DNA of 34,937 nucleotides, taken from NCBI GenBank assembly GCA_030533135.1, contig JAUNJR010000007.1, positions 1 to 34,937 on the forward strand, in the 5' to 3' direction. The notes beneath the pieces were generated by a model, which did not search any database, was not told the DNA's origin, and saw only the letters and a program-made list of their open reading frames with translations. How positions within the stretch are numbered: position 1 is the first letter of the stretch; every line of letters begins with the position of its first letter. Position numbers and translations under genes: made by a program. This DNA comes from Coriobacteriales bacterium. GTDB taxonomy: Bacteria; Actinomycetota; Coriobacteriia; Coriobacteriales; Atopobiaceae. Positions 1,449 to 18,850 of this stretch are shown here, one piece after another.

Positions 1449-1472
1449 AGACACCTCCTTCGAATCCTCTCA

Positions 1473-1588: not shown

Positions 1589-1597
1589 TGGTATAAT
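1589..1597 (+). promoter_or_regulatory. Extended -10 promoter of the cobU operon
   Basis: TGGTATAAT is an extended -10 element (TG at 1589-1590, TATAAT at 1592-1597) with no recognisable -35 at the normal distance. Transcription would start near 1604, giving a leader of only about 37 bases before the ATG at 1641. That is too short to hold a cobalamin riboswitch. Confidence 0.55.
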
Positions 1598-1640
1598 TTC
1601 CTATCGTTTCGTAACCTCTGCCACGATGAAGTGAGGCCTC

Positions 1641-1952
1641 ATGGAATGCAGCGCGCAACCACCGAAGAGCGGCGCCACGTTCTTCCGCAATGTGGATTGC
1701 CCCTACTTCCCCTGTCATGCGGGTGTGGATCCCATGTGGTTCAACTGCCTTTTCTGCTATTGCCCGCTCTATGCGCTCGGACCCCGTTGTGGAGGGGATT
1801 TCACCTATACGGACAACGGCATCAAGGATTGCTCCCGCTGCACACGGCTCCATGAGGGAGACGCCGGCATTCACCTGGTGAAGAAGCATTTTGCGGCACT
1901 TGCCGAGCTTGCCCGCTTGAACGGTCCTCGCGGAAGTGAGCTGCCTGAATGA
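1641..1952 (+). CDS. Small cysteine-rich metal-binding-type protein of cobalamin loci
   Basis: This 103-residue protein has nine cysteines (3, 20, 25, 36, 39, 41, 50, 64, 67). They sit in CPYFPCH, NCLFCYC and DCSRC clusters, with histidines at 26, 71, 78 and 83. The pattern matches the 'cysteine-rich small domain' (zf-like, PF04071), which recurs in cobalamin gene clusters; I recognise it by pattern, not by search. It may bind a metal such as zinc, cobalt or an Fe-S centre, possibly as a cobalt-handling or corrinoid-enzyme accessory. Its role is not established. GTGAGG precedes the ATG, and the stop overlaps the cobU start as ATGA, so it is the first gene of the cobU operon. There is no signal peptide, so it is probably cytoplasmic. 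Confidence 0.75.
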   Translation: MECSAQPPKSGATFFRNVDCPYFPCHAGVDPMWFNCLFCYCPLYALGPRCGGDFTYTDNGIKDCSRCTRLHEGDAGIHLVKKHFAALAELARLNGPRGSELPE

Positions 1953-2485
1953 ACGTCTTGGTGTTTGGTGGCGCAGGAAGTGGCAAGTCTGCCTTTGCGG
2001 AGCAGTATGCATGCACCCTTCCCGGAAGGCGAGTCTACGTCGCCACCATGGCAAACAGCGGTCGAGAGGCACAGGAACGCATCGACAAGCACCTGCGGCA
2101 ACGTGACGGGATGGGTTTCGAAACCGTCGAATGCCACGCCTCGCTTGACCAGGCATTCGTTCACGTCAAGAAACAGGATGTCATCCTACTTGATGACCTC
2201 GGAAACCTGGCAGCAGACGCCCTTTTCTCCCCCGACGGGCTGATGGCAGACCCAAAACAGACGCTGCAGAGGCTTGCTGATGAGGTGTTCTCGCTTGCCG
2301 ATGCCAGCGCACACCTGGTGGTGGTCGGAAACGATGTGGGAGGCGCGGGACTCACTGGCTTTCGGGGGACGGACACATGGATTACCCTGATGGGATCCCT
2401 CTGCTGTCAGCTTGCCGCTCGTTTTGATGTGGTCGTAGAGGTCGTTTCAGGTATTCCGTACACCGTGAAGGGCTCGCTCGCATGA
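1949..2485 (+). CDS. cobU: Adenosylcobinamide kinase / adenosylcobinamide-phosphate guanylyltransferase, motif-divergent
   Basis: CobU phosphorylates adenosylcobinamide and then transfers GMP to give adenosylcobinamide-GDP for nucleotide-loop assembly. At 178 residues it is of normal family length. The P-loop GGAGSGKS is at residues 7-14, the RIDKH segment places His48 at the position of the guanylylated histidine (His46 of the Salmonella enzyme), and the strand ILLDDLGNL is at 79-87. The conserved C-terminal block, NEVGMGIVP followed by a GRxNQ motif in Salmonella, is degraded here to NDVGGAGLTGF and MGSLCCQLA. A second, shorter CobU-like protein downstream keeps that block. The start overlaps the upstream stop, and the end overlaps cobS by four bases. 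Activity as a stand-alone enzyme is uncertain. Confidence 0.85.
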   Translation: MNVLVFGGAGSGKSAFAEQYACTLPGRRVYVATMANSGREAQERIDKHLRQRDGMGFETVECHASLDQAFVHVKKQDVILLDDLGNLAADALFSPDGLMADPKQTLQRLADEVFSLADASAHLVVVGNDVGGAGLTGFRGTDTWITLMGSLCCQLAARFDVVVEVVSGIPYTVKGSLA

Positions 2486-3243
2486 TTGTCATTCGCTCCC
2501 TCATCATGGCCTTCTCGTGCTTCTCGGCCATCCCCATGCCCACCATCGAATGGGACGAGTACAACATGCGCTACCTGATGGCAGCGTTTCCCCTGGTCGG
2601 AGTTGCCATTGGGGCGTCAGTCTTGATCTGGCAGCTCGTCTGTAGCACGCTTGGTTTCGGACCTGTGCTCACAGGAGCTGGATACACCCTCATCCCCATA
2701 CTCATCTCCGGGGGTATTCACCTCGACGGCTTTGCCGACGTCGTTGACGCGCAATCGAGCCACGCTGAGCCAGCGCGTAAGCGCGAAATTCTCAAGGACC
2801 CTCATATAGGTGCCTTCGCAGCCATGGGAACATGCTGCTATCTGATTGCCTACTTTGCGTTGACCTGCGAACTCGAGGAGCGCCACCTGCTGCTCCTTGC
2901 CTGCATGCCCGTCATCAGCCGCTGCCTGAGCGCCTTTGCGACCGTGACGTTTCGTTCTGCCAGCAAGTCTGGCATGCTCGCCGCTGAGCAATCAACGGCG
3001 AGCGCAAAGGTTGTGCGAGCTGTGGTGGCCGCGCTCTTTTGCCTGGCATCGGGAATCATGCTGTCCCGTGACGTCTTCGTCACCACCGTCACGCTCATAG
3101 TGGCAGTCGTGACGCTCTTGCTGGTCAGGCGTCTGGCTGAACGTGAGTACGGTGGCATGAGCGGAGACTTGGCGGGCTTCTTCTTGCAGGTTGCAGAACT
3201 TGCAATGCTCGCCTGCGTGGTAATCGTAGGAAGGATGGTATAA
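2482..3243 (+). CDS. cobS: Adenosylcobinamide-GDP ribazoletransferase (cobalamin synthase)
   Basis: CobS (CobV) joins adenosylcobinamide-GDP and alpha-ribazole (phosphate) at the cytoplasmic membrane to give adenosylcobalamin (phosphate). The 253-residue protein is of normal length and strongly hydrophobic. It carries the family signatures GGIHLDGFADVVDA (residues 77-90) and LKDPHIGAFA (104-113), whose acidic residues are expected to bind metal and substrate. Several transmembrane helices follow. ATGA overlap with cobU ties it to that gene. The substrate arm is made by CobT and CobC from the facing operon. Confidence 0.93.
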   Translation: MIVIRSLIMAFSCFSAIPMPTIEWDEYNMRYLMAAFPLVGVAIGASVLIWQLVCSTLGFGPVLTGAGYTLIPILISGGIHLDGFADVVDAQSSHAEPARKREILKDPHIGAFAAMGTCCYLIAYFALTCELEERHLLLLACMPVISRCLSAFATVTFRSASKSGMLAAEQSTASAKVVRAVVAALFCLASGIMLSRDVFVTTVTLIVAVVTLLLVRRLAEREYGGMSGDLAGFFLQVAELAMLACVVIVGRMV

Positions 3244-3246
3244 GCC

Positions 3247-3588
3247 ATGGTCCTCGTCATCGGTGGCATCGCCTCAGGCAAGCGCACCTACGTGCGGTCA
3301 CTCGGTTTTTCTGACGACCAGATGGATGCCTCCGTCATCTCGGATGCCCCCGTACTTGTCGGCCTTGAGGACCTTCTGCGAACGGGGGACCTTGACGAAC
3401 AGCAGATGGAAGTCGTCGCTCGCAAGGATGTCGTAGTGTGTTGCGAGGTCGGCATGGGCGTCGTTCCCCTGGACAGGGATGAGCGCACGTGGCGCGAACG
3501 TGTTGGCCGCACATGCACGGAGCTTGCAGCGCGCTCAGAGCGAGTCATCCGACTCGTGTGCGGCATCCCTGTCACAATCAAGGGCTAA
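3247..3588 (+). CDS. Short CobU-like protein (second copy, internally shortened)
   Basis: This 113-residue protein is about 65 residues shorter than a normal CobU. Its N-terminus has a P-loop-like GGIASGKR (6-13) in which the usual Ser/Thr after the lysine is Arg. Its C-terminal half, with EVGMGVVP (67-74), RERVGR and CGIPVTIKG, is a textbook match to the end of CobU. The whole middle, including the guanylylated-histidine segment and the central strand, is missing. The gene begins three bases after cobS and so is co-transcribed with it. It may be a decaying duplicate, a regulatory partner, or a subunit complementing the divergent full-length CobU; the clean start, stop and operon position argue for an expressed protein. 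Relationship to CobU is clear; function is not. Confidence 0.75.
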   Translation: MVLVIGGIASGKRTYVRSLGFSDDQMDASVISDAPVLVGLEDLLRTGDLDEQQMEVVARKDVVVCCEVGMGVVPLDRDERTWRERVGRTCTELAARSERVIRLVCGIPVTIKG

Positions 3589-3613
3589 GCCACAAACTCA
3601 AGAAAGGTTCACC

Positions 3614-4192: not shown

Positions 4193-4202
4193 GAAGGTCA
4201 CC

Positions 4203-5006: not shown

Positions 5007-5026
5007 GGCATCAGCAGGGATTACCT

Positions 5027-5045
5027 GTCGACAAAGGCTGTCGAC
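5027..5045. terminator. Weak hairpin between convergent operons
   Basis: Two copies of the palindrome GTCGAC (5027-5032 and 5040-5045) can pair across a seven-base loop in the 38-base gap between the GH25 gene and cobC. There is no T-run on either strand, so its role as a shared terminator is a guess. Confidence 0.25.
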
Positions 5046-5656
5046 TATCGCAGCAACGTAGCGATGCGCTGGGGGTCCTCAAGTTGCACTGACTCCCCCG
5101 CCAGACGAACGGTTACCCGATAACCCTCACAAGGGTCAACGTGCCAGCCATAATAGTCGTCACCGGGAGCTGGCATTTGTGCAAGGCCGTGCAGAGCCGC
5201 CATGATGGTGCCTCCGTGGGCAACCACGATTACGCTCTGCTCACCTCGCCGCTCAGCCCCAATCAGAAGGCTGACCAGCGCCTCATTGGAGCGACGCACG
5301 AATTCCTCGCGCGACTCCCCTTCCGGGCACCGTCCCATGCAGCCGCCGTCAACCCAGGCTCGATAGGCGACGTCGCTCACCATCTGGTCGGCGTTTCTTC
5401 CCTCGAAGACGCCAAAGTCAAACTCCTCAAGCCCCGGCACCACGAGCATCTCGGCATGGGGGAAACAGCGCTCAGCCGTCTGTCGCGCACGGATCAGGGG
5501 ACTCACATAGACTCGCTCGATCTGCGGATACACGCCAAGACGTGCGCATTGCTCAGAACCTTTCGGGCTCAGCGGCTCGTCAGTTCCACGTCCTACGTAG
5601 TTGCGAAGCTCGTTTCCCCGTGTTGCGCCATGACGCAGAAGCCAGAGCTCCATCAT
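5045..5656 (-). CDS. cobC: Alpha-ribazole phosphatase
   Basis: CobC removes the phosphate from alpha-ribazole-5'-phosphate (or from cobalamin phosphate) in nucleotide-loop assembly. The 203-residue protein is a histidine phosphatase: LLRHGATRGN holds the phosphorylated His9, RARQT is at 56-60, and VVAHGGT at 144-150 gives the second catalytic His147. The acidic segment LEEFDFGVFEG is typical. The sequence alone could also fit a general phosphoglycerate-mutase-like phosphatase, but the position as last gene of the cbi operon, with ATGA overlap to cobT, supports CobC. Confidence 0.88.
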   Translation of the reverse strand: MMELWLLRHGATRGNELRNYVGRGTDEPLSPKGSEQCARLGVYPQIERVYVSPLIRARQTAERCFPHAEMLVVPGLEEFDFGVFEGRNADQMVSDVAYRAWVDGGCMGRCPEGESREEFVRRSNEALVSLLIGAERRGEQSVIVVAHGGTIMAALHGLAQMPAPGDDYYGWHVDPCEGYRVTVRLAGESVQLEDPQRIATLLR

Positions 5657-6711
5657 GGCCTCACCTCATAGGGCTCCATCCCGCACTGCTCGAAGGTGGT
5701 CCCTGAACGGTAGAGCGAAAGCGCCATGTCGAGGAGGGGCACGAGGCAGGCCGCACCAGTTCCTTCTCCCAGGTGCAATCCGGCATCGATAGGCGGTCGC
5801 AGACCCATGCGATCGAGCAGAACGCCCGCTATGGGTTCGGAAGAACGGTGTGAGGGGAGCATTGCCGCCAAACACTCGGGCTGCATAAGGGAGGCACAGT
5901 ATGCTGCCACTACGCTGATGGCGCCGTCTATCACTACGGGCACGCGATGTACGGCTCCCCCGAGAAAGAGCCCAACAAGCCCGGCGATATCAAGACCCCC
6001 AAGCTTCGCGAGCACGTCAAGGGGATCATCTGCCCGTGCCTGGTTGACAGAGAGCGCCCGGGCAACCACCGCACGCTTTCGAGCGAGGCCTTCGTCGGAA
6101 AGCCCAGCCCCGCGCCCGACCAGCTGCTCGGGTGACATTCCGGTAAAAACGCAGGCCATAGCCGTGGCAGTCGTGGTGTTACCGATGCCCATCTCTCCTG
6201 TAGCGATGAGCTGATATCCTTGCGACTTCAGTTCACCCACAAGTTCAATTCCCACACCTATGGCTTGAAGAGCCTGATCGCGCGTCATGGCTGGCCCTTC
6301 GGCGATGTTGGCAGTACCGGCGGCAACGCGATGACTCAAGAGCCCCGGCTGGTCAGGATGCGAAACCATCCCAATGTCGACACCCACACAATCGATATGG
6401 ACCGGTGCGCACATTCGGCAGACCGAAGAGATCCCTTGGGCAATGCTCGCTGCGACGGTTGCCGTCACCTCTTGACCGCACTGCGAGACACCCTCAGCCA
6501 CCACTCCGTTGTCAGCACAGAGCACCACGAGGCAACGGCGTGAGATATCCACGTTCTCGCTCCCCACCAACCCCGCAATCGAGACCACGGCATCTTCGAG
6601 CAGCCCCAGTGAGCCAATTGGCTTCGCGATGGCATTCCAGCGTTGACGCGCGCGTGCCTGCGCCGCGACGTCTTGCCTGGCAATCACAAGGTTGTCGAGG
6701 TCAAATTCCAT
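5653..6711 (-). CDS. cobT: Nicotinate-nucleotide--dimethylbenzimidazole phosphoribosyltransferase
   Basis: CobT activates the lower-ligand base by transferring phosphoribose from nicotinate mononucleotide, giving alpha-ribazole phosphate. I start it at the ATG at 6711, with GGAAGGAG eight bases upstream, rather than at a GTG 24 bases earlier. This gives 352 residues, close to the 356 of the Salmonella enzyme. KPIGSLG is at 30-36, ATGEMGIGNTTTA is the central signature, and LHLGEGTGA near the end carries the catalytic Glu316. It starts 27 bases after cbiC and overlaps cobC by four bases. Which base it activates cannot be deduced; no bza or bluB gene is in the window. Confidence 0.95.
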   Translation of the reverse strand: MEFDLDNLVIARQDVAAQARARQRWNAIAKPIGSLGLLEDAVVSIAGLVGSENVDISRRCLVVLCADNGVVAEGVSQCGQEVTATVAASIAQGISSVCRMCAPVHIDCVGVDIGMVSHPDQPGLLSHRVAAGTANIAEGPAMTRDQALQAIGVGIELVGELKSQGYQLIATGEMGIGNTTTATAMACVFTGMSPEQLVGRGAGLSDEGLARKRAVVARALSVNQARADDPLDVLAKLGGLDIAGLVGLFLGGAVHRVPVVIDGAISVVAAYCASLMQPECLAAMLPSHRSSEPIAGVLLDRMGLRPPIDAGLHLGEGTGAACLVPLLDMALSLYRSGTTFEQCGMEPYEVRP

Positions 6712-6738
6712 GGCCTGCGCTCCTTCCACCACCACGCG

Positions 6739-7392
6739 CTACTCCCTGCGATTACCCGAGGCAAGGTAGAGCAGGGCATTCACGATGGCCGCCGCGACGT
6801 TTGACCCGCCCTTTCGGCCACGTGCAACTATCGATTCGACATCTGTGGCCATGATGAGCTCTTTGGACTCCACGACGTTCACAAAGCCAACGGGCACCCC
6901 GATGATGAGCGCTGGCCTCGGAAGCGAACCGTCATTGAGCATGCGGGCAAGACTCACCAATGCCGTCGGGGCATTGCCAATCGCAAAGACAAGCGTACCC
7001 GGGAGCTGTGCCGCTCGCTCCATGCTCACCGCTGACCTCGTCAGACCACGGCGCTTCGCCTCGGCGGCGACGTCCGCGTCCGCAATGAACGTGCACACTT
7101 GGCCACCAAAGCTCCCGAGCACCCGTTTATTGATGCCGGCAGCGACCATGCTCGTGTCCGTGATGACCGTGGCACCGTTGCGCAATGCCTCGACCCCACG
7201 CTCCACGGCATGTGCGGTGAAGGTGAGGGTCTTGGCATAGTCGAAGTCCGCGGTGGTGTGGATAACCCGCTTGACCACCAGTTCGGTCTGCGGGTCGAGG
7301 TCAAGCGGCCCCAGTTCCCTGCTGATTATCTCGAAGCTCGTCGCCTCGATGTCCTCCGGCTTCACATGCGTCAAGTGCAGCTGCTCGCTCAC
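6739..7392 (-). CDS. cbiC: Cobalt-precorrin-8 methylmutase
   Basis: CbiC moves the methyl group from C11 to C12 of cobalt-precorrin-8, giving cobyrinate. The 217-residue length is normal. RVIHTTADFDY (42-52) contains the catalytic His45. NGATVITDTSMVAAGINK and PVGFVNVVESKE are family signatures, and ARGRKGGSNVAAAIVNAL closes the protein. It overlaps cbiP by four bases (ATGA). It follows the amidase gene although it acts before it, so operon order does not mirror pathway order. Confidence 0.95.
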   Translation of the reverse strand: MSEQLHLTHVKPEDIEATSFEIISRELGPLDLDPQTELVVKRVIHTTADFDYAKTLTFTAHAVERGVEALRNGATVITDTSMVAAGINKRVLGSFGGQVCTFIADADVAAEAKRRGLTRSAVSMERAAQLPGTLVFAIGNAPTALVSLARMLNDGSLPRPALIIGVPVGFVNVVESKELIMATDVESIVARGRKGGSNVAAAIVNALLYLASGNRRE

Positions 7393-8891
7393 AGCCCCTC
7401 CTCGATGATTCGGTAGATGAGGTCCATATCCATGCTCGAACGCACGCCATCGGCCAATATGTCGAGCTGGTGTGAGCGATAGGTAGCCATGTCAAGGAAG
7501 GGTGCGTCCTCCACGGTGAGACCGCGGCAGTCAAGCAGGGACTTGACCAGCGCTTGATTTGCGTCAGCACTATCAAAGATGCCATGGAGATAGCAGCCGT
7601 AGACGTTACCCGACTGACACCCGTCCTCGATGTAGCCCCTTTCCGTAGCCAAGCGCAGCAGGGGCAGCCCACCATCACGTATGGTTCTTCCCATATGGAT
7701 CTCATACCCCTGAACCGGACATCCAGCAAGCGAAGCAAGTGGCCCTTCAACACCTTGAAACGACCCCTCGACACGTGTCGTGCGCTTCTCAGTGCCAAAG
7801 GTGGTGTGTATCGGAAGCAAACCCATACCAGTCAGCTCTCCCCCGCCTTCCACGCCCTCAGGGTCCCTCACGGACAGGCCCAGCATCTGGTACCCCCCAC
7901 AGATACCCAGAATGGGCGTTCCAGAAGTCGCAAGCCGCGTGACCGCTGCCTCGAGCCCGCTTCTGCGCAGCCAGGTAAGGTCATTCATGGTTGCCTTGGT
8001 TCCAGGAATGATGACCAGGTCAGGGCGGCCAAGTTCTTGCGGGGCGGTAACGTAGCGCACGCTCACACTCGAAAGCGCGTCGAGTACGATGAAGTCGGTG
8101 AAGTTCGAGATTTTGGGAAGGCGTATAACCGCGATGTCAACAAGGGTGTCCCGTGCTCGTGACAGCAACCGCTCCGACATGCTGTCCTCGTCTTCGAGGT
8201 CCACGTCTAGGTAGGGCACAAGGCCCGCAACGGGCACCCCCATGCGCTCACGCAGGATGTCGAGCCCCTCGTCAAAGAGCGTTGGGTCTCCGCGAAACTT
8301 GTTCACGATCGAGGCCTTGACCATGCGTCGCTCATCCTCGTCCAAAAGCATCATAGTGCCGACGAGCTGGGCGAACACACCACCACGATCGATGTCTCCC
8401 ACCAGAAGCACAGGGGCGGAAGCCATCTTGGCCATGCCCATGTTGACGATGTCGTCGCGTTTGAGATTGAGCTCGACAGGACTGCCCGCACCTTCGATAA
8501 CGATGACGTCAAAGTCGGCAGCAAGCGCCTGATATGAGTCCCTGATGGTGTCTTTGAGCGAGCGCTTGAACGAGAAGTACTCGCGGGCCGGCATCGTGCC
8601 CAGCGGGACTCCTCGCACGACGACCTGGCTACCAACATCACTGGTAGGCTTGAGCAGCACGGGGTTCATGTCAACACGCGGTTCGATACCCGCTGCCTCA
8701 GCCTGCAGAGCCTGTGCGCGGCCCAATTCCAACCCATCTGGCGTAATGGCCGAATTCAACGCCATGTTCTGGGACTTGAAGGGGGCAACGCGCAGCCCAT
8801 CTTGGGAGAGCACGCGACAGAGCCCCGCCACGAGCAGGCTCTTTCCCACCCCCGACATGGTCCCTTGCACCATGATGGGCTTGGCGCTCAT
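7389..8891 (-). CDS. cbiP: Cobyric acid synthase (glutamine-hydrolysing)
   Basis: CbiP (CobQ) amidates the b, d, e and g side chains of adenosylcobyrinate a,c-diamide, using glutamine and ATP. The 500-residue protein has the N-terminal ATP-binding domain (GTMSGVGKS, residues 10-18; FKSQNMALNS, 38-47) and a C-terminal class I glutamine amidotransferase domain with the nucleophile Cys331 in LGICGGYQMLG. YEIHMGRT is the later family motif. ATGA overlaps join it to cobD upstream and cbiC downstream. No active-site residue appears to be missing. Confidence 0.96.
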   Translation of the reverse strand: MSAKPIMVQGTMSGVGKSLLVAGLCRVLSQDGLRVAPFKSQNMALNSAITPDGLELGRAQALQAEAAGIEPRVDMNPVLLKPTSDVGSQVVVRGVPLGTMPAREYFSFKRSLKDTIRDSYQALAADFDVIVIEGAGSPVELNLKRDDIVNMGMAKMASAPVLLVGDIDRGGVFAQLVGTMMLLDEDERRMVKASIVNKFRGDPTLFDEGLDILRERMGVPVAGLVPYLDVDLEDEDSMSERLLSRARDTLVDIAVIRLPKISNFTDFIVLDALSSVSVRYVTAPQELGRPDLVIIPGTKATMNDLTWLRRSGLEAAVTRLATSGTPILGICGGYQMLGLSVRDPEGVEGGGELTGMGLLPIHTTFGTEKRTTRVEGSFQGVEGPLASLAGCPVQGYEIHMGRTIRDGGLPLLRLATERGYIEDGCQSGNVYGCYLHGIFDSADANQALVKSLLDCRGLTVEDAPFLDMATYRSHQLDILADGVRSSMDMDLIYRIIEEGL

Positions 8892-9925
8892 CTGGCCACC
8901 TCCTCAAGCACCGCGATGAAGCGGTCGTTCTCCGCGGCTGTTCTTACCGCAATGCGATGCCAACGCTCGTCAAGCCCACGGAAATTAGCACACGAGCGCA
9001 CAAGTACGCCATGACTCAGGAAGGCATCGGTTAGATCTTCCCGCGCTTTCCAAAGAAGGTAGTTTACCTCCGACTCCACAACGCCCATCCCCGTTTCACG
9101 AAGCGTCATTGCAAGACGGGCGCGCTCATTCGCAATCAGATCGAGGCTTTGTTTGAGATAATCCGCAGGGTCTTTGAGGCAAGCAACCCCGGCGACCTGT
9201 GCGGGGACCGACACTGCCCACGGCTGTCCTGCCTCACGAAGGCGTTCAAGGAGGCTCTGGTTTGCCGTCAGCGCATAGCCAACGCGCAGGCCAGCGAGGG
9301 CAAATGTCTTGGTCAGCGCCTTGACAATGACAAGGTTGGGGAAGGCGGGGAGCAGGTCGTTGGAAGGACGTCCCTGTTCCGCAAGGTCGATGAAGCATTC
9401 GTCGAGGACCACGATCGCCCCGGCTTCGCGTGCACGCTCCAGCAACGCAACGATTGCGTCTCGTGTGACGCATCGCCCCGTGGGATTGTTGGGGTTGGCA
9501 ATGAACACGAGGTCAGTACCCTTGGTAAGAGCAGCTGCCATAGAGGATTCGAGGCCGAATCCGTCCACCTCGCTCAAATCATGGTACGTGACTTGAGCAC
9601 CAACCTGCGCAAGTGCCTGCTCGTAACCCAAATAGCACGGCGCATAGAGAAGTGCCTTGTGAGGACGTATGACTGTACAAAGGCGGGCAAAGGCATCGGT
9701 AGCCCCCGCGCATGCAAGGACTGATGACTCAGCCACGTCCTCGAAAGCGGCAATGGCGTGCGTCAGCTCAGTACACAGGGGGTCGGGATAGGAGGTGTAT
9801 TGGTCCACACAGGCCACGAGCGCTTCCCGTGCAGCGATGGGCATACCCATCGGGTTCAGGCTTGCCGAGAAGTCAAGAACACCAGGGTGGCGATAGATGT
9901 TACCCCCGTGCTCAAAGCGCTCCAT
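8888..9925 (-). CDS. cobD: L-threonine-O-3-phosphate decarboxylase (aminopropanol-phosphate synthesis)
   Basis: CobD makes (R)-1-amino-2-propanol phosphate for the corrin side arm. The 345-residue protein is a fold-type I PLP enzyme: FSASLNPMG at 19-27, NPNNPTG at 144-150, Asp175 in VLDECFIDL and the PLP lysine Lys206 in ALTKTFALAGLRVGY. Histidinol-phosphate aminotransferases (HisC) look alike. The FSASLNPMG start and the place between cbiB and cbiP favour CobD. It overlaps the end of cbiB by 14 bases and cbiP by four. The L-threonine kinase (PduX) that would supply its substrate is not in the window. Confidence 0.9.
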   Translation of the reverse strand: MERFEHGGNIYRHPGVLDFSASLNPMGMPIAAREALVACVDQYTSYPDPLCTELTHAIAAFEDVAESSVLACAGATDAFARLCTVIRPHKALLYAPCYLGYEQALAQVGAQVTYHDLSEVDGFGLESSMAAALTKGTDLVFIANPNNPTGRCVTRDAIVALLERAREAGAIVVLDECFIDLAEQGRPSNDLLPAFPNLVIVKALTKTFALAGLRVGYALTANQSLLERLREAGQPWAVSVPAQVAGVACLKDPADYLKQSLDLIANERARLAMTLRETGMGVVESEVNYLLWKAREDLTDAFLSHGVLVRSCANFRGLDERWHRIAVRTAAENDRFIAVLEEVAR

Positions 9926-10901
9926 GGAGCATCACCTCCCCAAACGGATACAAGACACGGGCAATCCCCACAGAGAGCACCAGCGCGGCCACGGAGGTCG
10001 CATAGAGCAGCCTAATTGCTGCGTGGATGTCTTTTGGTTCAATCGTCCTCAGGTCATCGCCTATGGTTGGTTTGTCAACAACCGCCCCAAAGTAACTCGC
10101 AGGACCTGCAAGCTGCACACCCAGCGCACCTGCGCAAGCGGCTTCGGGATGGCCCGCATTGGGTGATGAGTGTCTCTTGCCGTCACGCTTCAGGATGCGC
10201 CATGCACCAGCCCCATCAAGCCCGATCAGCGGTGCCACAAGACACATGAGCACCGCCGTGAGGCGTGCAGGCAACCAATTGCACACGTCGTCAAGATGTG
10301 CAGCCGCGGTGCCAAAGAAGCGATACCGCTCGTTCTTGTAGCCGACCATCGAATCCATGGTGTTCACCGCTTTGTAGAAGACCCCCGCAACAGGACCTCC
10401 CACCGCCATGAAGAGCAATGGGGCGACCATCCCATCCGAGGCATTCTCGGCCACGGTCTCGACAGCCGCCCGAGTGACGCCAGCTTCGTCCAATGCCTGT
10501 GTGTCGCGACCGACAATCATCGAAACTGCGCGACGTGCTGCTTCGAGGCCCTCGTCAACCAGTGCGTGATAGACGTGCATGGCCTCCTTGCCCAACTGAC
10601 GAGCGGCTACCATCTGATAACAGACGAAGACTTCGACAGCGATTCCCAACGGGGCGGCGATTGCCCACGCGAGGCGAATGACCGCCCAAGCACAGCCGCA
10701 TGCAACAGATGTGACCACAAGTACCAAGGCAACGCCCGCCGCCCGTTCTCCATAGGGTGTAGACGGGAAGATGCCCCGCAGCGTCTGTTCGCACCACGCG
10801 ATGAGCGACCCAATGAAACGAATGATGTGAGGCATCCTATACGGGTCACCCAAGAAGGCATCAAGCAGACAGGCGCAGACGAGGATTGCGGCGCGCATCA
10901 T
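9912..10901 (-). CDS. cbiB: Adenosylcobinamide-phosphate synthase
   Basis: CbiB joins aminopropanol (phosphate) to adenosylcobyric acid in the membrane. I place the start at the ATG pair at 10901-10896, three bases downstream of the cbiA stop codon. This gives 329 residues; upstream in-frame codons lie inside cbiA and would add an unlikely arginine- and cysteine-rich tail. LLDAFLGDPYRMPH near residues 10-24 is the family start signature. DEAGVTRAAVETVAENASDG and GAWRILKRDGKRHSSPNAG are conserved loops, and the rest is largely hydrophobic with several membrane helices. Confidence 0.93.
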   Translation of the reverse strand: MMRAAILVCACLLDAFLGDPYRMPHIIRFIGSLIAWCEQTLRGIFPSTPYGERAAGVALVLVVTSVACGCAWAVIRLAWAIAAPLGIAVEVFVCYQMVAARQLGKEAMHVYHALVDEGLEAARRAVSMIVGRDTQALDEAGVTRAAVETVAENASDGMVAPLLFMAVGGPVAGVFYKAVNTMDSMVGYKNERYRFFGTAAAHLDDVCNWLPARLTAVLMCLVAPLIGLDGAGAWRILKRDGKRHSSPNAGHPEAACAGALGVQLAGPASYFGAVVDKPTIGDDLRTIEPKDIHAAIRLLYATSVAALVLSVGIARVLYPFGEVMLHGAL

Positions 10902-10903
10902 GA

Positions 10904-12307
10904 CTACCACGCCCCTTCGCCCATATCGGCAGGGGCGCCCAATCCGTATGCGACACAGGCATCCACGAAACGCTTGGCAGCAACGGGGCTTCCGCAGAGG
11001 TATAGATGCGGGAAACCCGCATAGAGCGTTCCAGTAGCTTGCACGCAATCCCAGGAACGCTCACTCTGGGGCTTGCGTGCATGGAACGCGTTGCCAGGAT
11101 GCTCGCTTTCCCAGTAATGAAACTCATGCGCCGCCAGCCGTTCACCCTTATGAGCAAGCAAGCTTTCGCCGCATGCCTCCAAGGTGACATACCCAAAGCG
11201 CCCCAAGCGCTCCGTACGGAATGCCCTCCCAGTCACAGCGCCCACCATAGGCCAGTCCTGTCCCTGCATATCCTCAAGCGTCTCATGGAGATAGAGGAAA
11301 CCACCACATTCGGCAATGGTTGGCATACCCGATGCAATCGCGACCCGTAGCTGCGTGCGAAGCGCCGCGTTTGCGCCGAGTTCACGTGCATGGAGCTCTG
11401 GGTACCCACCGCCAAGGTAGAGCCCACACGTCCCCGTGGGAAGCTCTTGGTCGCGCAAGGGTGAAAACGGCACGACATGGGCACCCAAACGCTCAAGCAA
11501 ATCAAGGGAATCGCGGTAATAAAAGCTGAAGGCGTCATCATGTGCCACCGCAATGACCGGCTTGTCAGGCACTGGCTCCGGCAGTTCACGTGGTCGATAG
11601 ACGAGTGGTTGGGCACCCCGCGCATGGGCAAGGATTGCCTCGACATCAAGAGTCGTGCGCAGCGTCTCTGCAAGCGCATCAATGCGCGTACGGAAATCCG
11701 CGATCTCCTCCGCACGGACCAGGCCCAGATGGCGACTCGGAAGGCTTGCCTCCTCTATCGGTGGCATAAAACCGAACACGGGCAACCCAGTCTCCCGCTC
11801 GACCGCCTCCTTGAGCAGCGGATAGCGCGCAGCGCTCACGCGATTCAGGACAACGCCCACAACCTGCGAGGGACTGCGAAAGCGAGCGAACCCCGCCACC
11901 TCGGCAGCGACTGAAAGCGAGCGAGCGCGGGCGTCCACCACGAGTATCACAGGCGATTTGGTGACGCAAGCAACATCGTACGACGAGGCATCAGTACCCA
12001 GGGCAATACCATCGTAGTAGCCCATAACCCCCTCGATGACGGTGACGTCGGCACCCTTGGCGCCCTCGGCCAGAAGCTCGCACACAAGATCGGCGTTGCC
12101 CAGGAAGAGGTCGAGGTTGCGCGAGGGCACGCCTAATACCCGCTCGTGGAAGGTCGGGTCTATGAAATCAGGCCCCACCTTGCCAGCAGCAACCGACAGC
12201 CCCGCGTCCTTAAGCACCTGCAGGAGGCCGCAGGTAAACGTGGTCTTTCCTGAGCCGCTTGCTGTTCCGGCCACGATGATGCGAGGCGCCTCAGCACGTA
12301 TCGCCAT
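10904..12307 (-). CDS. cbiA: Cobyrinate a,c-diamide synthase
   Basis: CbiA amidates the a and c carboxylates of cob(II)yrinate with glutamine and ATP. The start at 12307 has AAGGAGG five bases upstream, so the 32 extra upstream in-frame residues are rejected and the protein is 467 residues, as usual. The P-loop is AGTASGSGKTT (13-23), KVGPDFIDP follows at 43-51, and the glutamine amidotransferase nucleophile is Cys334 in IAECGGFLYL. FHYWE near the end belongs to that domain. It overlaps cbiET by 17 bases. Together with CbiP it performs all six side-chain amidations. Confidence 0.95.
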   Translation of the reverse strand: MAIRAEAPRIIVAGTASGSGKTTFTCGLLQVLKDAGLSVAAGKVGPDFIDPTFHERVLGVPSRNLDLFLGNADLVCELLAEGAKGADVTVIEGVMGYYDGIALGTDASSYDVACVTKSPVILVVDARARSLSVAAEVAGFARFRSPSQVVGVVLNRVSAARYPLLKEAVERETGLPVFGFMPPIEEASLPSRHLGLVRAEEIADFRTRIDALAETLRTTLDVEAILAHARGAQPLVYRPRELPEPVPDKPVIAVAHDDAFSFYYRDSLDLLERLGAHVVPFSPLRDQELPTGTCGLYLGGGYPELHARELGANAALRTQLRVAIASGMPTIAECGGFLYLHETLEDMQGQDWPMVGAVTGRAFRTERLGRFGYVTLEACGESLLAHKGERLAAHEFHYWESEHPGNAFHARKPQSERSWDCVQATGTLYAGFPHLYLCGSPVAAKRFVDACVAYGLGAPADMGEGAW

Positions 12308-13538
12308 GCGCACCTCCTTGCGCATCACCTGTCGCAGGACCATCAGCACAGATAAGATAAACGGGGTTGTTGGCCTCCATGAGGTGGTAGTTACCAACTG
12401 CACGTGCTTTCGAGATGGCTACCTGTGTGATATCCACATGAACGAGCCCCAGCTCAAGGGCAAGGCTTGTCATTGTGGAAAGCGTCTCGATGGTGACAGC
12501 CGGTACACAGATACGCACTGCGGGATTTGCCCTGATCACGGTGCGGAGGATCTCCTCGAGCTCCCCTGCTGACCCTCCCACAAAGACGCGGTCAGGCGCT
12601 GGTGCCTTGCACAACGCCTCTGGGGCCATGCCCGGAACAACCGAGACGTTCGTGAGCCCAAACGCCGAGGCGTTCCGCTGGATGAGCCCGAGTGCTTCAT
12701 CATTGCGCTCAATCGCAAAAACCTGGCCCTGCCACGCTGCCCGCGCCAGCTCCACCGTAACCGATCCCGTTCCCGCACCGATGTCCCACACGATATCGGT
12801 CGGATGGACACGCAGCTTACAGACGGCAAGCTCACGCACCTCCTCCTTCGTCATGGGAACGTTGCCCCGGATAAAGGCATCATCAGGCAGCCAGGGAGAA
12901 GAGACGCCTGGACTCAAGGGCGCATCATTCTCGACCAGAAGGGCCGCGAGCGGCTCGAATCGCATGCCCGCAAGCTGACGCGCCGTCCCTTGCACGATGC
13001 GTTCATCATCGTAGGACAGACGCTCCCCCACGAAGACGTGGGCCTCCCCAAGCCCACGCTCCACAAGCGTGGAACAGACGCCCTCGGCGGATGAGGTGCC
13101 ACCTACCAGGAAAAACGAACGACGGTGTGACTGAACGATGCCAGCGACATCACACAACCGACCATGGGCTGACGCTGCGAAGACGTCCTGCCAGGTGGTC
13201 TTCAGGCGCGCACAGAAATACGAGAGCGTCGAGATGCCTGGCAGCACCTCGACCCGCATCTTGTCCAAGAGCGGGAGGAGCGACGTAGCACCGCTATAGA
13301 AGCCCACGTCACCGCTCATAACGACGCTCGCAACCGTAACGTCGGAGCCTTCTAGCAGCCCAGCTATTGCCGAAGCACTGACGAGCGGTACCGTGCGCAC
13401 CGCAAGGTCGGAAAGGCCCTCGAGCAGGCGCGGTGCACCAATCACGAGCTCGCTTTCTGCGAGCGCCTCGCGCGCCTCGATCGTAAGCGTCTTGGGGTTC
13501 CCCATGCCCATCCCAATGACAAAGACTTTAGAGACCAT
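12291..13538 (-). CDS. cbiET: Fused cobalt-precorrin-7 C5-methyltransferase / cobalt-precorrin-6B C15-methyltransferase (decarboxylating)
   Basis: This 415-residue fusion combines CbiE (residues 1 to about 205) and CbiT (about 215 to 400), the arrangement called CobL in aerobic pathways. The CbiE part starts with VFVIGMGMGNP and has the SAM-binding MSGDVGFYS loop (74-82). The CbiT part has PMTKEEVRELAVCKL and the class I methyltransferase glycine motif WDIGAGTGSVTVE (251-263). It methylates C5 and C15 and removes the acetate carboxylate at C12. The end overlaps cbiA by 17 bases; the start overlaps cbiJ by 11. The fusion is known in other bacteria. Confidence 0.94.
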   Translation of the reverse strand: MVSKVFVIGMGMGNPKTLTIEAREALAESELVIGAPRLLEGLSDLAVRTVPLVSASAIAGLLEGSDVTVASVVMSGDVGFYSGATSLLPLLDKMRVEVLPGISTLSYFCARLKTTWQDVFAASAHGRLCDVAGIVQSHRRSFFLVGGTSSAEGVCSTLVERGLGEAHVFVGERLSYDDERIVQGTARQLAGMRFEPLAALLVENDAPLSPGVSSPWLPDDAFIRGNVPMTKEEVRELAVCKLRVHPTDIVWDIGAGTGSVTVELARAAWQGQVFAIERNDEALGLIQRNASAFGLTNVSVVPGMAPEALCKAPAPDRVFVGGSAGELEEILRTVIRANPAVRICVPAVTIETLSTMTSLALELGLVHVDITQVAISKARAVGNYHLMEANNPVYLICADGPATGDAQGGAHGDTC

Positions 13539-14286
13539 AGCGTTCCTCCAGCGCGATCAAAGCCTCTTCGAATGTGAGCCCTTCCTCCTCGCACGGTCGA
13601 CTAATAACGACGAGGCCAATCCCGCAATCCTCGGCTGCCCGTATCTTCTCTTCAAACCCACCCGAGGCGCCCGACTGCTTGGTCACCAACCACGAAATGT
13701 CCAGCTGCCGTATGAGCGCCTTGTTGAGGTCCTCGGAACAGGGGCCTTGCATCGCGATGACGTGGCTCGTGGGAATCCCGAGCTTATCAGCATGATCGAG
13801 CGCTGCCATGACAGGAAGGATGCGAATGAAGAGTCGATCGCGGTAGTCTGCAAGCGCTTCGACATACGTCGCAAGGTCCTTGCTCCCCGTGGTCAGCAAA
13901 ATGTTGCCCGGCACACGCGAGAGGTGGGCAGCAGCCTCGTGAGCATCCCTGACTGATACCCAGGTGCCCTCCTGCGCTGGGTCACGGACGACGCGAACGA
14001 CGTCCTTCCCATAGGCCTGTGCCAGTTCAGCAATGCTTTGCGAGATATGAGTGGCATACGGATGCGTGGCGTCAACCACACATTCAAAGTCGTGGCTCTC
14101 CATGAGGTGTCGCTTATCGTCTTGTGACAGCGGTCCACGAAGCACTGTCACGTGGGAACCGCCCTCAAGAAGACGTGCGCCATAATCCGTTGCCGTACAG
14201 GCAACAACCTTGCACGTGCCACGCGCCTCAAGCCACTCGACTATCTGACGCCCCTCGACGGTACCCCCAAAGACCAAGACCTCCAT
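13528..14286 (-). CDS. cbiJ: Cobalt-precorrin-6A reductase
   Basis: CbiJ (CobK type) reduces cobalt-precorrin-6A to 6B with a nicotinamide cofactor. The 252-residue protein opens with MEVLVFGGTVEGR, the nucleotide-binding start typical of the family. It continues with CVVDATHPYATHIS, the strongly conserved substrate-binding segment, and LTTGSKDL and KQSGASGGFEEKI in the C-terminal half. It abuts cbiH without any spacer and overlaps cbiET by 11 bases. Confidence 0.94.
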   Translation of the reverse strand: MEVLVFGGTVEGRQIVEWLEARGTCKVVACTATDYGARLLEGGSHVTVLRGPLSQDDKRHLMESHDFECVVDATHPYATHISQSIAELAQAYGKDVVRVVRDPAQEGTWVSVRDAHEAAAHLSRVPGNILLTTGSKDLATYVEALADYRDRLFIRILPVMAALDHADKLGIPTSHVIAMQGPCSEDLNKALIRQLDISWLVTKQSGASGGFEEKIRAAEDCGIGLVVISRPCEEEGLTFEEALIALEERYGL

Positions 14287-15021
14287 TTAAGCCCCTTCCT
14301 GGGCATATCCACGCGGGGTGACCATGCGCCCAGACACGACGCGCGTCATGGAGTTACCCACGAAGACGGAGGTAAGCATGTCCACCTGCGTATTCCTCAG
14401 CTCCCCGAGCGTGAGAATATGCGATGACTGTCCCTCACGACCGATGTTGCGCACATACCCACAAACGGTCAGTGGGCTGCGATGGGAAAGCAGGATGTCG
14501 CAGGCGCGGCGAAGATGGTCACGACGCCCATGAGAGGACGGATTGTACAGAACGATGCAAAAATCTGCCTCCGCAGCCGCCACAAGCCGTCGCTCGATAG
14601 TCTCCCAGGGAGTCATTAAGTCAGAGAGCGAGATGGTGCACCAATCGTGCATGAGCGGAGCGCCAAGCACCGCCGCACCGCCATTTGCAGCCGTGACCCC
14701 CGCCACGATGTCAACGTCAACCCCGGGGTACTCCTCAGCCAGCTGAAGAAGCAATCCGGCCATTCCATAGACACCGGGATCTCCCGAGCAAACCAAGGCA
14801 ACGCGCTGACCCGCAGCCGCTCGATCGAGCGCCATGCGACAGCGCTCGACCTCGGAGCGCATGGGCGTAGCAAGGAACTCCTTGTCGGGATAGGCATCGC
14901 GCACGAGCTCAATATAGGTTGTGTAGCCAACGATGAGATCTGCCTCCTCGAGGGCCGTACGCGCCTTGCCTGTCAGGTCGTCATGGGCACCAGGACCCAA
15001 TCCTACGCAGGTCAGCCGCAT
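14287..15021 (-). CDS. cbiH: Cobalt-precorrin-3B C17-methyltransferase
   Basis: CbiH methylates C17 and drives ring contraction to cobalt-precorrin-4. I start at the ATG at 15021 (MRLTCVGLGPG), with AAGGAGG four bases upstream, giving 244 residues. The SAM tetrapyrrole methylase signatures are GLGPG (7-11), VCSGDPGVYGMA and VAGVTAANGGAAVLGAP, and YNPSSHGRRDHL is typical of CbiH/CobJ. It lacks the C-terminal extension found in some CbiH proteins. The start overlaps the end of cbiFG by ten bases. Confidence 0.94.
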   Translation of the reverse strand: MRLTCVGLGPGAHDDLTGKARTALEEADLIVGYTTYIELVRDAYPDKEFLATPMRSEVERCRMALDRAAAGQRVALVCSGDPGVYGMAGLLLQLAEEYPGVDVDIVAGVTAANGGAAVLGAPLMHDWCTISLSDLMTPWETIERRLVAAAEADFCIVLYNPSSHGRRDHLRRACDILLSHRSPLTVCGYVRNIGREGQSSHILTLGELRNTQVDMLTSVFVGNSMTRVVSGRMVTPRGYAQEGA

Positions 15022-16856
15022 TGTGCCTCCTTGTCTCTCGACCATCCCACAAAGGAGAGGCGTGTTTCGTGCAGAGCGATTGCTACGGTGATACCGGGAA
15101 AGCGACGTCGCCCCAACACGAGCGTGCCGCCCGTTGCGCAGGCAGCTCGTTCGCAGACGTTATCGACTCCTACGGTCTCCTTTACGAAGGCAGACGATGA
15201 GAAGCTACCGGGAACAGCCGCGAGCTGTTCGGCACTTTGGAACCGCACAGGAACACCAAGGCGCTTCCCCAGCTCGAGGATGCCCAACTCGTCTTGCTTG
15301 ACATCAATGGTCACCAGCTCCCGCACGGCCTCACGTGCAAGATGGGCTTCGGAAAGCGCCACTTCAAGTGCCGCCTCGAGCTCGTCTACTGCCGTACCCC
15401 GCTTGCAACCGATGCCGACCGTCGCGACACGAGGGACCAAGCGCAACGTTGCCGCAAAAGGCCTTAAGGCCGCATCAAGCGAGATGGAGATGCCTACCTC
15501 GCAGCTGTCTGCTTCTTCTCCGCATGCAAGGCCCTGCGGGAGTGGGCCCTCAAGGGGGATCGTACTGGTCAAGCCAACCGTTTTGCCTTCAAGCAATGCC
15601 GTCGCGACGTGGCGGGCCTCGACACGATCGAGCAAGGCGAGACCTTGCCGCGCTGCCCACTCATCGACGGCGAAGACGCCGTTGACGTCCGTAGCCGTAG
15701 TGATGACGGGCTGTGCCCCACAGAGCCCCGCAATGGTGCGGGCCAAGGCATTTGCACCACCAACGTGGCCCGACAACAACGGAGTAACAAAGCGCGCCGT
15801 CTCATCGATGCAGATTACCGCTGGATCACGGAACTTATCAGTCGCATATGGCGCAATGGTGCGTACCGCGATTCCGCAGGCAGAGACGAAGATGAGCGCG
15901 TCAGAGCGCGAGAAGGCGTCACGAGCCCAATCGGAAAGGTTGCCGAATGGGCTCACCCCGTTGGTTGCAAGCCGCATTGGGGCAGATAGGTCAACCACAT
16001 GGCCTTGCCCCGCTAACCCCTCGGCCAACTGCCGGGCTAGCGAGAGACCGCGCGCCGTGAACGCAACGACGCTCACACTTTGGGTACGCTGTTGATTCAC
16101 GGCGCCATGAGCGGCACGATACCCATGGCTAAACTCGGGGTCGTACAGCTTGGAGCGCTCTCCGTGACCGTCGAGAGCGTCTCCCACAATGACCAGTGCG
16201 GTCTTCGTAATGCCGTGAGTTTTGGCGCAGTCGGCGAGCGTTGCGACCGTGCAACGATACACGGCCTCATCTGGCCACGTAGCGCGATAGACAATGGCCG
16301 CGGGCGTCTGAGGCGCATAGCCACCAGCCAACAGCTCCGTCTGCGCTTTGGCAAGCAATCCAGTTGAGAGAAAGAGAGCCATCGTGCACCCGTGGGCAGC
16401 CAAGAAGCTCAGACGCTCGCGATCCGGCACGGGCGTACGCCCCGCAGCACGTGTGACGATGAGCGACTGCGACACACCTGGCAGCGTATATTCAGTCTTA
16501 AGCGCAGCGGCAGCACCGAAAAGCGACGAGACGCCAGGCACGACGTCATAGTCAATGCCCACAGCGTCGAGGGCCGTCATCTGCTCCGCAATGGCACCAT
16601 AGAGCGACGGGTCTCCTGTATGCAGGCGCACGCACGCAAGCCCTCGCTCCTGTGCATCGCGCATGACCTGGACGGTCTCCTCGAGCGTCATGGATGCGGA
16701 GTCGAAGACCGTGCACGTTGGCTTGCGAAACTCGAGCAGCTCGGGGTTCACAAGGGAACCCGCATAGATGATGACGTCTGCTTCCTTCAGGAGGCGCGCG
16801 CCGCGTACGGTTATAAGGTCGGGTGCTCCGGGCCCCGCTCCAACGAAATGAATCAT
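15012..16856 (-). CDS. cbiFG: Fused cobalt-precorrin-4 C11-methyltransferase and cobalt-precorrin-5A hydrolase
   Basis: This is a 614-residue two-domain protein. Residues 1 to about 245 are CbiF: IHFVGAGPGAPDLITVRG, the SAM loop LHTGDPSLYGAI and VPGVSSLFGAAAAL. After a short linker, residues about 255-614 are CbiG, with VSACGIAVRTIAPY, TPLLSGHVGGANALAR and VGIGCKRGTAVDELEAAL. CbiF methylates C11; CbiG opens the delta-lactone and releases acetaldehyde in the anaerobic route, so joining two consecutive steps makes sense for passing an unstable intermediate. It shares ATGA with cbiD and overlaps cbiH by ten bases. The presence of CbiG marks the pathway as oxygen-independent. Confidence 0.94.
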   Translation of the reverse strand: MIHFVGAGPGAPDLITVRGARLLKEADVIIYAGSLVNPELLEFRKPTCTVFDSASMTLEETVQVMRDAQERGLACVRLHTGDPSLYGAIAEQMTALDAVGIDYDVVPGVSSLFGAAAALKTEYTLPGVSQSLIVTRAAGRTPVPDRERLSFLAAHGCTMALFLSTGLLAKAQTELLAGGYAPQTPAAIVYRATWPDEAVYRCTVATLADCAKTHGITKTALVIVGDALDGHGERSKLYDPEFSHGYRAAHGAVNQQRTQSVSVVAFTARGLSLARQLAEGLAGQGHVVDLSAPMRLATNGVSPFGNLSDWARDAFSRSDALIFVSACGIAVRTIAPYATDKFRDPAVICIDETARFVTPLLSGHVGGANALARTIAGLCGAQPVITTATDVNGVFAVDEWAARQGLALLDRVEARHVATALLEGKTVGLTSTIPLEGPLPQGLACGEEADSCEVGISISLDAALRPFAATLRLVPRVATVGIGCKRGTAVDELEAALEVALSEAHLAREAVRELVTIDVKQDELGILELGKRLGVPVRFQSAEQLAAVPGSFSSSAFVKETVGVDNVCERAACATGGTLVLGRRRFPGITVAIALHETRLSFVGWSRDKEAQCG

Positions 16857-18025
16857 CGCGTCTCCCCCGCTCCTTCGTCCAACCGCAAACCGTGACGGTG
16901 GAGCTCCATAAGCGTTTCCGCGCCAGCCGTCATGCCCAGCGTTCCCCGCTTGTTAGAGAACATCACGGCTTCAACCTGCAAGGATTCGCCTGCACGATGC
17001 GAAAGCACCGCACCCAGACGGTCGACCATCGTCTGCAGGGCGGACGTGAGCAGTCCATGTTCATCAAGCACATCGAGAGCCGCATCGGTCGTCGCAGCAC
17101 CCATGATGAGCGCGATGTCTTGAGCAGTGGCCCCCGCCAACGCAGCATGGGCAGCAAGTATCTCCATGCGGCAGTCAGCCACGCGTGAGTGCGTGTTCAT
17201 GATGCCACCCGCAACTTTGACCAGCTTGCCGACATGACCCACTAAAAGGAGCGTTCTAAACCCCAGGAGCACCGCCTCGTCCAGAACGGCGCCCACGTAG
17301 TTCGAGCAGCTCACCATGCGATCATCAGAAAGACCGAGGCTCTGGACGGCAAAGTCATGGCCGTAGTTACCAGGCACGACCAGCACGTCATTGACGCCCG
17401 TGGCACGCTTCACCCGAAGCTCGAGCTTGAGTGACGAGACAAGCGCTTCCTCGCTCATGGGACGAACGATGCCACTCGTTCCCAGGACCGAGATGCCACC
17501 CTCTATCCCAAGGCGTGGGTTAAAGGTTCGCTGGGCAAGCACCACTCCCTCGGGAATGGAGATCTCCACCACAAGGCCACCCTGATACCCATGCGCTCGC
17601 GAAGCCTCCTGTGCCTCCTGGGTAATCATGGTTCGTGGCACCGCATTGATGGCAGCAGCGCCAACCGGCTGATCAAGCCCAGGTCGTGTCACACGCCCAA
17701 CCCCCTCGCCACCAAGAATGGTGACGCCAGGATTCTCCGCAAGCGATACGCGAGCAACGACCAGCACGCCGTCCGTCACATCCGGGTCATCACCTGCATC
17801 TTTCCGAACGGCACAGCGAGCCCACGTGTTTCCACGCTCAGCCTCTTCCACCTCTACCAACACATCGATGCCCGCAGGGACGCTCATGACCACCGAAGGA
17901 ACCTCGACACCGCCCAACAGGAGCTCAGCTGCCGCACGCGTCGCGGCTGCGGCACAGGTTCCCGTCGTGTATCCACAACGCAAAAGCTTTCCGCCTGTGC
18001 TTATGTACTCGTCAAGTTGATGCAC
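16853..18025 (-). CDS. cbiD: Cobalt-precorrin-5B C1-methyltransferase
   Basis: CbiD adds the C1 methyl group in the anaerobic pathway. I start at the GTG at 18025, which has AAGGAGG five to six bases upstream; earlier in-frame starts lie in the ATPase gene. This gives 390 residues. The signature LLRCGYTTGTCAAAATRAA lies at 14-32; later blocks are VPGNYGHDFA, LVGHVGKLVKVAGGIMNTHS and MFSNKRG. It overlaps the ATPase gene by 14 bases and cbiFG by four, which couples importer and biosynthesis genes in one transcript. Confidence 0.94.
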   Translation of the reverse strand: MHQLDEYISTGGKLLRCGYTTGTCAAAATRAAAELLLGGVEVPSVVMSVPAGIDVLVEVEEAERGNTWARCAVRKDAGDDPDVTDGVLVVARVSLAENPGVTILGGEGVGRVTRPGLDQPVGAAAINAVPRTMITQEAQEASRAHGYQGGLVVEISIPEGVVLAQRTFNPRLGIEGGISVLGTSGIVRPMSEEALVSSLKLELRVKRATGVNDVLVVPGNYGHDFAVQSLGLSDDRMVSCSNYVGAVLDEAVLLGFRTLLLVGHVGKLVKVAGGIMNTHSRVADCRMEILAAHAALAGATAQDIALIMGAATTDAALDVLDEHGLLTSALQTMVDRLGAVLSHRAGESLQVEAVMFSNKRGTLGMTAGAETLMELHRHGLRLDEGAGETR

Positions 18026-18848: not shown

Positions 18849-18850
18849 GG

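What the first reader, a model, noticed from the sequence alone, without database searches (positions are those of the whole stretch)
3247..3588. Two CobU proteins with complementary losses
The full-length CobU (1949-2485) keeps the Ser-containing P-loop and the guanylylated histidine region but has lost the NEVGMGIVP and GR-NQ motifs. The 113-residue second protein keeps EVGMGVVP and the following block almost perfectly but lacks the middle and has Arg in place of Ser/Thr in the P-loop. The cobS gene lies between them in one operon. Each seems to hold blocks the other lost, as if one active site had been divided between two subunits.
Basis: partly seen in the sequence, partly recalled or inferred. 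Interest (0 to 1): 0.65.

Follow-up and report, generated by a model that had tools for sequence, protein, structure and literature searches.

The report
Vitamin B12 enzyme CobU in two parts
In many gut bacteria an enzyme of vitamin B12 synthesis, normally one protein, appears as two inherited-together proteins that have each lost the motifs the other keeps, which suggests that they work as one two-part enzyme.

Summary
The window holds a full-length CobU (1949-2485, "long"), cobS, and a 113-residue CobU (3247-3588, "short"). Across 90 long, 94 short and 60 ordinary CobUs, the long type keeps the P-loop Ser and the His46 position but loses GxG(I/V)VP and the Arg helix; the short type keeps exactly those, and lacks the His segment and the P-loop Ser. 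In 243 Clostridia genomes the short protein occurs in 37, all with a long-type CobU, and in none of 75 with other CobUs; 2 of 39 long-type genomes lack it. In Coriobacteriia the pair is complete in 18 of 18. The genes are fused in one frame, with at least two origins; three genomes carry two complete pairs. The short protein is predicted as a confident compact CobU fold. The pair is the only CobU found in a genome whose window carries a B12 pathway. Best reading: an obligate two-subunit CobU with a shared active site. Physical contact and activity are not shown. Nine literature searches gave no description of it.

The parts
1949..2485 (+). Long-type CobU (178 aa): nucleotide half; P-loop, Walker-B-like LLDD and guanylylated-His segment kept
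   Evidence: PF02283 103.2 bits; clade separate from ordinary CobU
1967..1990 (+). P-loop GGAGSGKS of the long protein (Ser kept)
   Evidence: Ser kept in 87/90 long proteins
2078..2092 (+). RIDKH: His48, in the place of Salmonella His46
   Evidence: His in 88/90 long proteins
2327..2401 (+). Stretch where the long protein has lost NExGxG(I/V)VP and the Arg helix (GNDVGGAGL...TDTWITLMGSL)
   Evidence: G139 2/90, P142 5/90, R151 11/90
2432..2458 (+). VVEVVSGIP with the clade-specific Glu164 (Salmonella position 170)
   Evidence: Glu in 85/90 long proteins; Leu in 52/60 ordinary CobU
2482..3243 (+). cobS (adenosylcobinamide-GDP ribazoletransferase), overlaps the end of long cobU
   Evidence: PF02654 151.4 bits; lies between long and short in 97 of 111 loci
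3247..3588 (+). Short CobU (113 aa): partner half without His segment and Walker-B-like strand
   Evidence: PF02283 45.0 bits over profile 111-168; model pLDDT 96.7, CobU Z 12.8 over all 113 residues
3262..3285 (+). GGIASGKR: P-loop-like loop with Arg in place of Ser
   Evidence: Ser in 3/94 short proteins
3439..3513 (+). CCEVGMGVVP...ERTWRERVGRT: the block that the long protein lost
   Evidence: G139 94/94, P142 93/94, R148 89/94, R151 94/94, G155 94/94 in short proteins
3544..3570 (+). VIRLVCGIP with the clade-specific Arg102 (Salmonella position 170), opposite in charge to Glu164 of the long protein
   Evidence: Arg in 90/94; Glu/Arg in 78 of 82 pairs
5045..8891 (-). Context: cobC-like phosphatase, cobT, cbiC, cbiP/cobQ
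   Evidence: Pfam and NCBIfam
8888..19963 (-). Context: aminotransferase (cobD-like), cbiB, cbiA, corrin methylases, cbiJ, cbiG, cbiD and an ABC uptake system: a corrin pathway that needs CobU activity
   Evidence: Pfam; names of the single methylases not resolved

Best explanation
[quoted passage not shown] They arose from an ordinary CobU by duplication followed by complementary loss. The long subunit binds the nucleotide (P-loop, Walker-B-like acid) and carries the histidine that takes up GMP. The short subunit, a CobU fold stripped of the histidine segment and of a working P-loop, supplies the GxG(I/V)VP loop and the arginine helix in trans across the subunit interface. Shown: complementary conservation, co-occurrence, pair inheritance, fusions, predicted fold of the short chain, purifying selection. 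Inferred: that the two chains touch, that the loop and arginines reach the long chain's site, and that both are needed for activity.
For: (1) Complementary conservation: of positions conserved in 60 ordinary CobUs, the long type keeps G11 86/90, K12 86/90, S13 87/90, H46 88/90, R50 89/90 and loses G139 (2/90), P142 (5/90), R148 (14/90), R151 (11/90), R156 (19/90); the short type keeps G139 94/94, P142 93/94, R148 89/94, R151 94/94, R156 83/94 and lacks the H46/R50 segment (94/94 gaps at 46) and S13 (3/94). (2) Co-occurrence in Clostridia: of 243 genomes, 114 have CobU over the cut-off (39 long-type, 75 other); the short protein is in 37, all long-type (Fisher p 6e-28, kinship not corrected). 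Coriobacteriia: 18 of 18 long-type genomes have it, 0 of 47 others. (3) Fusions of long to short in one open frame in four genomes (L110/L181, L161, L162, L167), at least two origins. (4) Three of 18 followed-up genomes (G148, G152, G154) carry two longs and two shorts, as two pairs. (5) All 111 loci with both have them on one strand, long first; cobS between in 97, adjacent in 13. (6) The deepest split of the long tree recurs in the short tree (95*), distances correlate (r 0.60, 0 of 1000 permutations). (7) Position 170, Leu in 52/60 ordinary CobUs, is Glu in 85/90 long and Arg in 90/94 short; Glu/Arg in 78 of 82 pairs. (8) Only these two CobU genes were found in the genome, which has the pathway.
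Against: Two related genomes (G249, G268) keep a long-type CobU with no short protein found anywhere, in G249 inside a cob operon; their C-terminal part is very diverged and position 170 is Lys, so they may work otherwise or not at all. One MAG (G161) has a short and no long, possibly from incompleteness. No complex was modelled: the fusion model's short half has pLDDT under 50, its alignment holding long rows only. Vertical inheritance in one operon explains part of the co-occurrence and of the tree congruence. The E and N of the NEVG motif are not cleanly divided. That the GxGVVP/Arg segment acts across the interface in ordinary CobU was not checked against coordinates.
Confidence: 0.68

Rival explanations
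1. The long protein is by itself a working but narrower CobU (for instance guanylyltransferase only, kinase lost because CbiB can deliver the phosphorylated form), and the short protein is a regulatory or stabilising partner that does not enter the active site.
For: The long protein keeps P-loop, acid and His; G249 and G268 have long only; the short protein mostly lacks a hydroxyl residue in its P-loop.
Against: A regulator need not keep just the residues the enzyme lost (G139, P142, R148, R151, R156), at 83 to 94 of 94.
Confidence: 0.2
2. The two activities were split: the long protein is the guanylyltransferase and the short protein is a separate kinase for cobinamide salvage.
For: CobU is bifunctional (recalled; names of the Pfam and NCBIfam models), so a division of labour is conceivable.
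Against: The short protein has Ser or Thr at the P-loop position in only 12 of 94 (3 Ser, 9 Thr) and lacks the acid at position 80 in most, so an independent kinase is unlikely; fusions and strict pairing fit one machine better.
Confidence: 0.06
3. The short gene is a decaying remnant of a duplicated cobU.
For: It lacks a third of the domain and a P-loop Ser.
Against: Kept in 37 of 39 and 18 of 18 long-type genomes; dN/dS 0.08 to 0.43 in 9 of 10 pairs of relatives, 0.71 in one pair with few changes; confident fold; fusions.
Confidence: 0.02

Closest known systems
CobU of Salmonella (PDB 1cbu, 1c9k) and other ordinary CobU (PF02283; PDB 7tm8, 8yes, 8ykc, 9vio)
   Same: Same fold (long half of the L110 fusion Z 18 to 23; window short Z 12 to 13 over 112 or 113 residues), same company of cobS, cobT, cobC; the motifs of the two proteins together make up nearly one ordinary CobU.
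   Different: Ordinary CobU has all motifs in one chain and is a homotrimer (recalled); here they lie in two chains, and both fall under the NCBIfam equivalog cut-off (93 and 46.8 bits against 161).
CobY, the archaeal non-homologous guanylyltransferase
   Same: Another way to do a CobU step in cobamide synthesis (PMC4626045, start of the abstract seen in the listing).
   Different: Unrelated protein; the best hit of TIGR00454, taken from memory as a CobY-like family, in this genome is 19.5 bits against a cut-off of 174.7.
Hetero-oligomers from duplicated P-loop subunits with one catalytic and one degenerate copy (for example F1-ATPase beta/alpha)
   Same: Recalled analogy: a nucleotide site completed by residues of a degenerate paralogue.
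   Different: No membership claimed; the CobU pair belongs to cobamide synthesis and the degenerate copy has lost about a third of the domain.

Membership tests
CobU family (PF02283) | Match over Pfam's curated cut-off (27 bits) | tested here: met
   Long 103.2 bits, short 45.0 bits
CobU equivalog (NCBIfam NF004469, bifunctional kinase/guanylyltransferase) | Score over the equivalog cut-off of 161 bits | tested here: not met
   Long 93.0, short 46.8 bits
Ordinary one-chain CobU | P-loop Ser, His46 and NExGxG(I/V)VP...R..R....R in one chain | tested here: not met
   Divided between two chains
CobU fold | Structural match to solved CobU | tested here: met
   Short model Z 12.8, rmsd 2.5, 113 aligned; long half of the L110 fusion Z 22.7, rmsd 2.1, 169 aligned
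CobU | Kinase and guanylyltransferase activity | not testable with these tools
   Needs assay
Two-subunit CobU (proposed) | Partners co-occur | tested here: met
   37 of 39 and 18 of 18 long-type genomes
Two-subunit CobU (proposed) | Physical complex with a shared site | tested here: inconclusive
   Fusion modelled with long rows only; short half pLDDT under 50

The most novel reading that the evidence does not exclude
A whole clade of gut Clostridia and Coriobacteriales makes cobamides with an obligate heteromeric CobU in which the GMP-carrying histidine and P-loop sit in one subunit and the GxGVVP loop and arginines in another, locked together in part by a Glu-Arg pair at one homologous position. 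It arose once, was passed between phyla as a gene pair, and was re-fused at least twice.
Probability: 0.55. Interest if true: 0.72.

Novelty: new variant of a known kind. Interest (0 to 1): 0.62.

Why it matters
CobU joins the corrin ring to the lower-ligand pathway in cobamide synthesis. If the pair is one enzyme, annotation and metabolic models that count either protein as a complete bifunctional CobU are wrong for many gut Clostridia and Coriobacteriales, and deleting either gene should stop cobamide assembly. It would also be a clear natural case of one active site divided between duplicated subunits, with one-chain relatives, separate pairs and re-fused forms all available for comparison, so the order of events and the job of each CobU motif become testable.

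Tried and rejected
Pseudogene reading of the short gene: rejected. CobY replacement: best TIGR00454 hit in the own genome 19.5 bits against a cut-off of 174.7; that this model stands for CobY is from memory. Cobalamin riboswitch in the window: no Rfam match at gathering level. Modelling the long-short contact: MAFFT laid long rows on the short half, or short rows on the long half, in every mix of both tried, so the fusion was folded with long rows only and its short half failed. Structure papers for the newer CobU entries: not found, so trimer and active-site statements are recalled. Prior description: searches gave no paper on a divided or paired CobU; of these I saw listings, and passages of PMC6593275, PMC8123684 and PMC3814363.

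Rows dropped or uncertain: 16 loci showed only one of the two genes. Four (L061, L065, L069, L172) have the long gene split by an insertion and under the script's threshold, and L100 has both interrupted. L213/L214, L216/L217 and L218/L219 are two contigs of one genome each. For L067 and L127 a long-like match lies on another contig; for L129 none was found. L165 and L166 lack the short. Some of the 111 loci are one place fetched twice (L110/L181, L107/L183, L116/L185). In one search the absence of the short gene in the 47 other genomes rests on Pfam alone; one of them (G084) has an N-terminal CobU fragment at a contig end, and the other second hits are under the cut-off. The dN/dS script stopped at its 11th pair on masked bases.

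Full report
What is there. On the + strand the window carries, in a row, a small Cys-rich protein (1641-1952), long CobU (1949-2485), cobS (2482-3243) and short CobU (3247-3588). On the - strand from 5045 runs a cobC-like phosphatase, cobT, cbiC, cbiP, an aminotransferase, cbiB, cbiA, corrin methylases, cbiJ, cbiG and cbiD with an ABC uptake system. The two CobU genes are the only PF02283 matches in the genome, which is 87% complete. An organism with this pathway is expected to need CobU activity, and this pair is its only visible source.

The complementary losses. I aligned 90 long, 94 short and 60 ordinary CobUs after removing near copies from 117, 121 and 63. Numbering follows Salmonella CobU. 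Long proteins keep G11 (86/90), K12 (86/90), S13 (87/90), H46 (88/90), R50 (89/90) and an acid at 80 (66 Glu and 24 Asp of 90). They lose G139 (2/90 keep it), P142 (5/90), R148 (14/90), R151 (11/90) and R156 (19/90). Short proteins keep G139 (94/94), P142 (93/94), R148 (89/94), R151 (94/94), G155 (94/94), R156 (83/94) and E135 (82/94), but have no residue at 46 (94/94 gaps) and Ser at 13 in only 3/94 (Thr in 9). N134 goes the other way: kept in 63/90 long and 15/94 short proteins. That His46 is the guanylylated residue is recalled; the title of PDB 9vit, an H49A CobU, fits it.

A new charged pair. At position 170 ordinary CobU has Leu (52/60), the long type Glu (85/90) and the short type Arg (90/94). 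In 82 loci with both aligned, 78 have Glu with Arg. The two long proteins without a short partner (L165, L166) have Lys there, though they are diverged throughout. I read this as a possible interface or site residue; that is inference.

Distribution. In the class Coriobacteriia (148 genomes), 65 have CobU over the cut-off: 18, all of the window's order, have a lower-scoring full-length match plus a short C-terminal match; 47 have a single ordinary-scoring CobU. In the class of the Lachnospiraceae genome G149 (243 genomes) 114 are over the cut-off: 73 at 142 bits or more, two odd ones nearer to ordinary CobU (G282, G279), and 39 of the long type (compared with long, short and ordinary profiles, where G391 and G363 were not printed one by one). 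A profile of short proteins gives a full-length match in 37 genomes, every one long-type. The exceptions are G249 and G268. A scan of named genome contigs with the short profile found 92 places and kept 80 loci, in Coriobacteriia and Clostridia.

The pair as a unit. In 111 loci with both genes they lie on one strand with the long gene first: cobS between in 97, adjacent in 13, something else in one. In L110 (same place as L181), L161, L162 and L167 one open frame of 317 to 324 codons holds long then short; a tree needs at least two changes between fused and separate. G148, G152 and G154 have two longs and two shorts each, as two pairs. In Collinsella the short protein is instead fused to a histidine phosphatase like CobC.

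Origin. Long and ordinary CobUs from both classes fall on two sides of one branch (SH-aLRT 100; 98 with the N-terminal part alone, which leaves out the lost motifs). On the C-terminal part short (88), long (99) and ordinary (73) each form one side of a branch. Coriobacteriales rows lie among Clostridia rows, which suggests transfer between phyla; single forks there are often weak. The deepest split of the long tree recurs in the short tree (95) and distances correlate (r 0.60; 0 of 1000 permutations as high), so the pair is probably older than that split.

Function of the short protein. dN/dS of the short gene is 0.08 to 0.43 in nine of ten pairs of relatives and 0.71 in one with few changes (ratios of the dN and dS). 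Its model from 51 rows has mean pLDDT 96.7 and pTM 0.89 and aligns over all 113 residues with solved CobU (Z 12.8, rmsd 2.5); the best chain outside CobU has Z 7.0. So it is predicted as a compact CobU fold without the His segment, not a scrap.

Mechanism, with its limits. The simplest account is a heteromer in which the long chain holds nucleotide and GMP-histidine and the short chain supplies the GxGVVP loop and arginines. CobU is related to RecA-type P-loop proteins, in which segments after the sensor strand often serve the neighbouring subunit (recalled); CobU is a trimer (recalled). I could not test the contact: the L110 fusion was folded with long rows only, giving a good long half (Z 22.7 to 9vis) and an unmodelled short half.

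Verdict. Its idea of a divided enzyme is well supported as a genetic partnership and plausible, not shown, as a shared active site. The literature searches brought no description of it; the library searched lacks most subscription papers.

Noticed in passing
L084, L064 and L076 against L062 and L073, locus coordinates about 1-14,650: A block of about 14 kb with the cob genes is about 98% identical in DNA between Collinsella aerofaciens and Senegalimassilia, Ellagibacter and Gordonibacter records, and in L084 and L064 the likeness stops sharply just after a stop codon near 14.61-14.65 kb: it looks like a recently moved B12 island, unless the records are contaminated.
   Followed up: partly
L062:8001-8999 and other Collinsella loci: The short CobU is fused to a CobC-like histidine phosphatase.
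   Followed up: partly
L165 (G249) and L166 (G268): A long-type CobU with a strongly diverged C-terminal part and no short partner found in the genome; in L165 it lies in a cob operon.
   Followed up: partly
L061, L065, L069, L172: Long-type CobU with an insertion in the middle of the domain.
   Followed up: no
L168 (G167:C4): An ordinary 164-residue CobU with a second 86-codon CobU fragment about 2 kb away.
   Followed up: no
window 1641-1952: A Cys-rich small protein (PF04071) that overlaps the start of long cobU by a few bases; its role is unknown.
   Followed up: no
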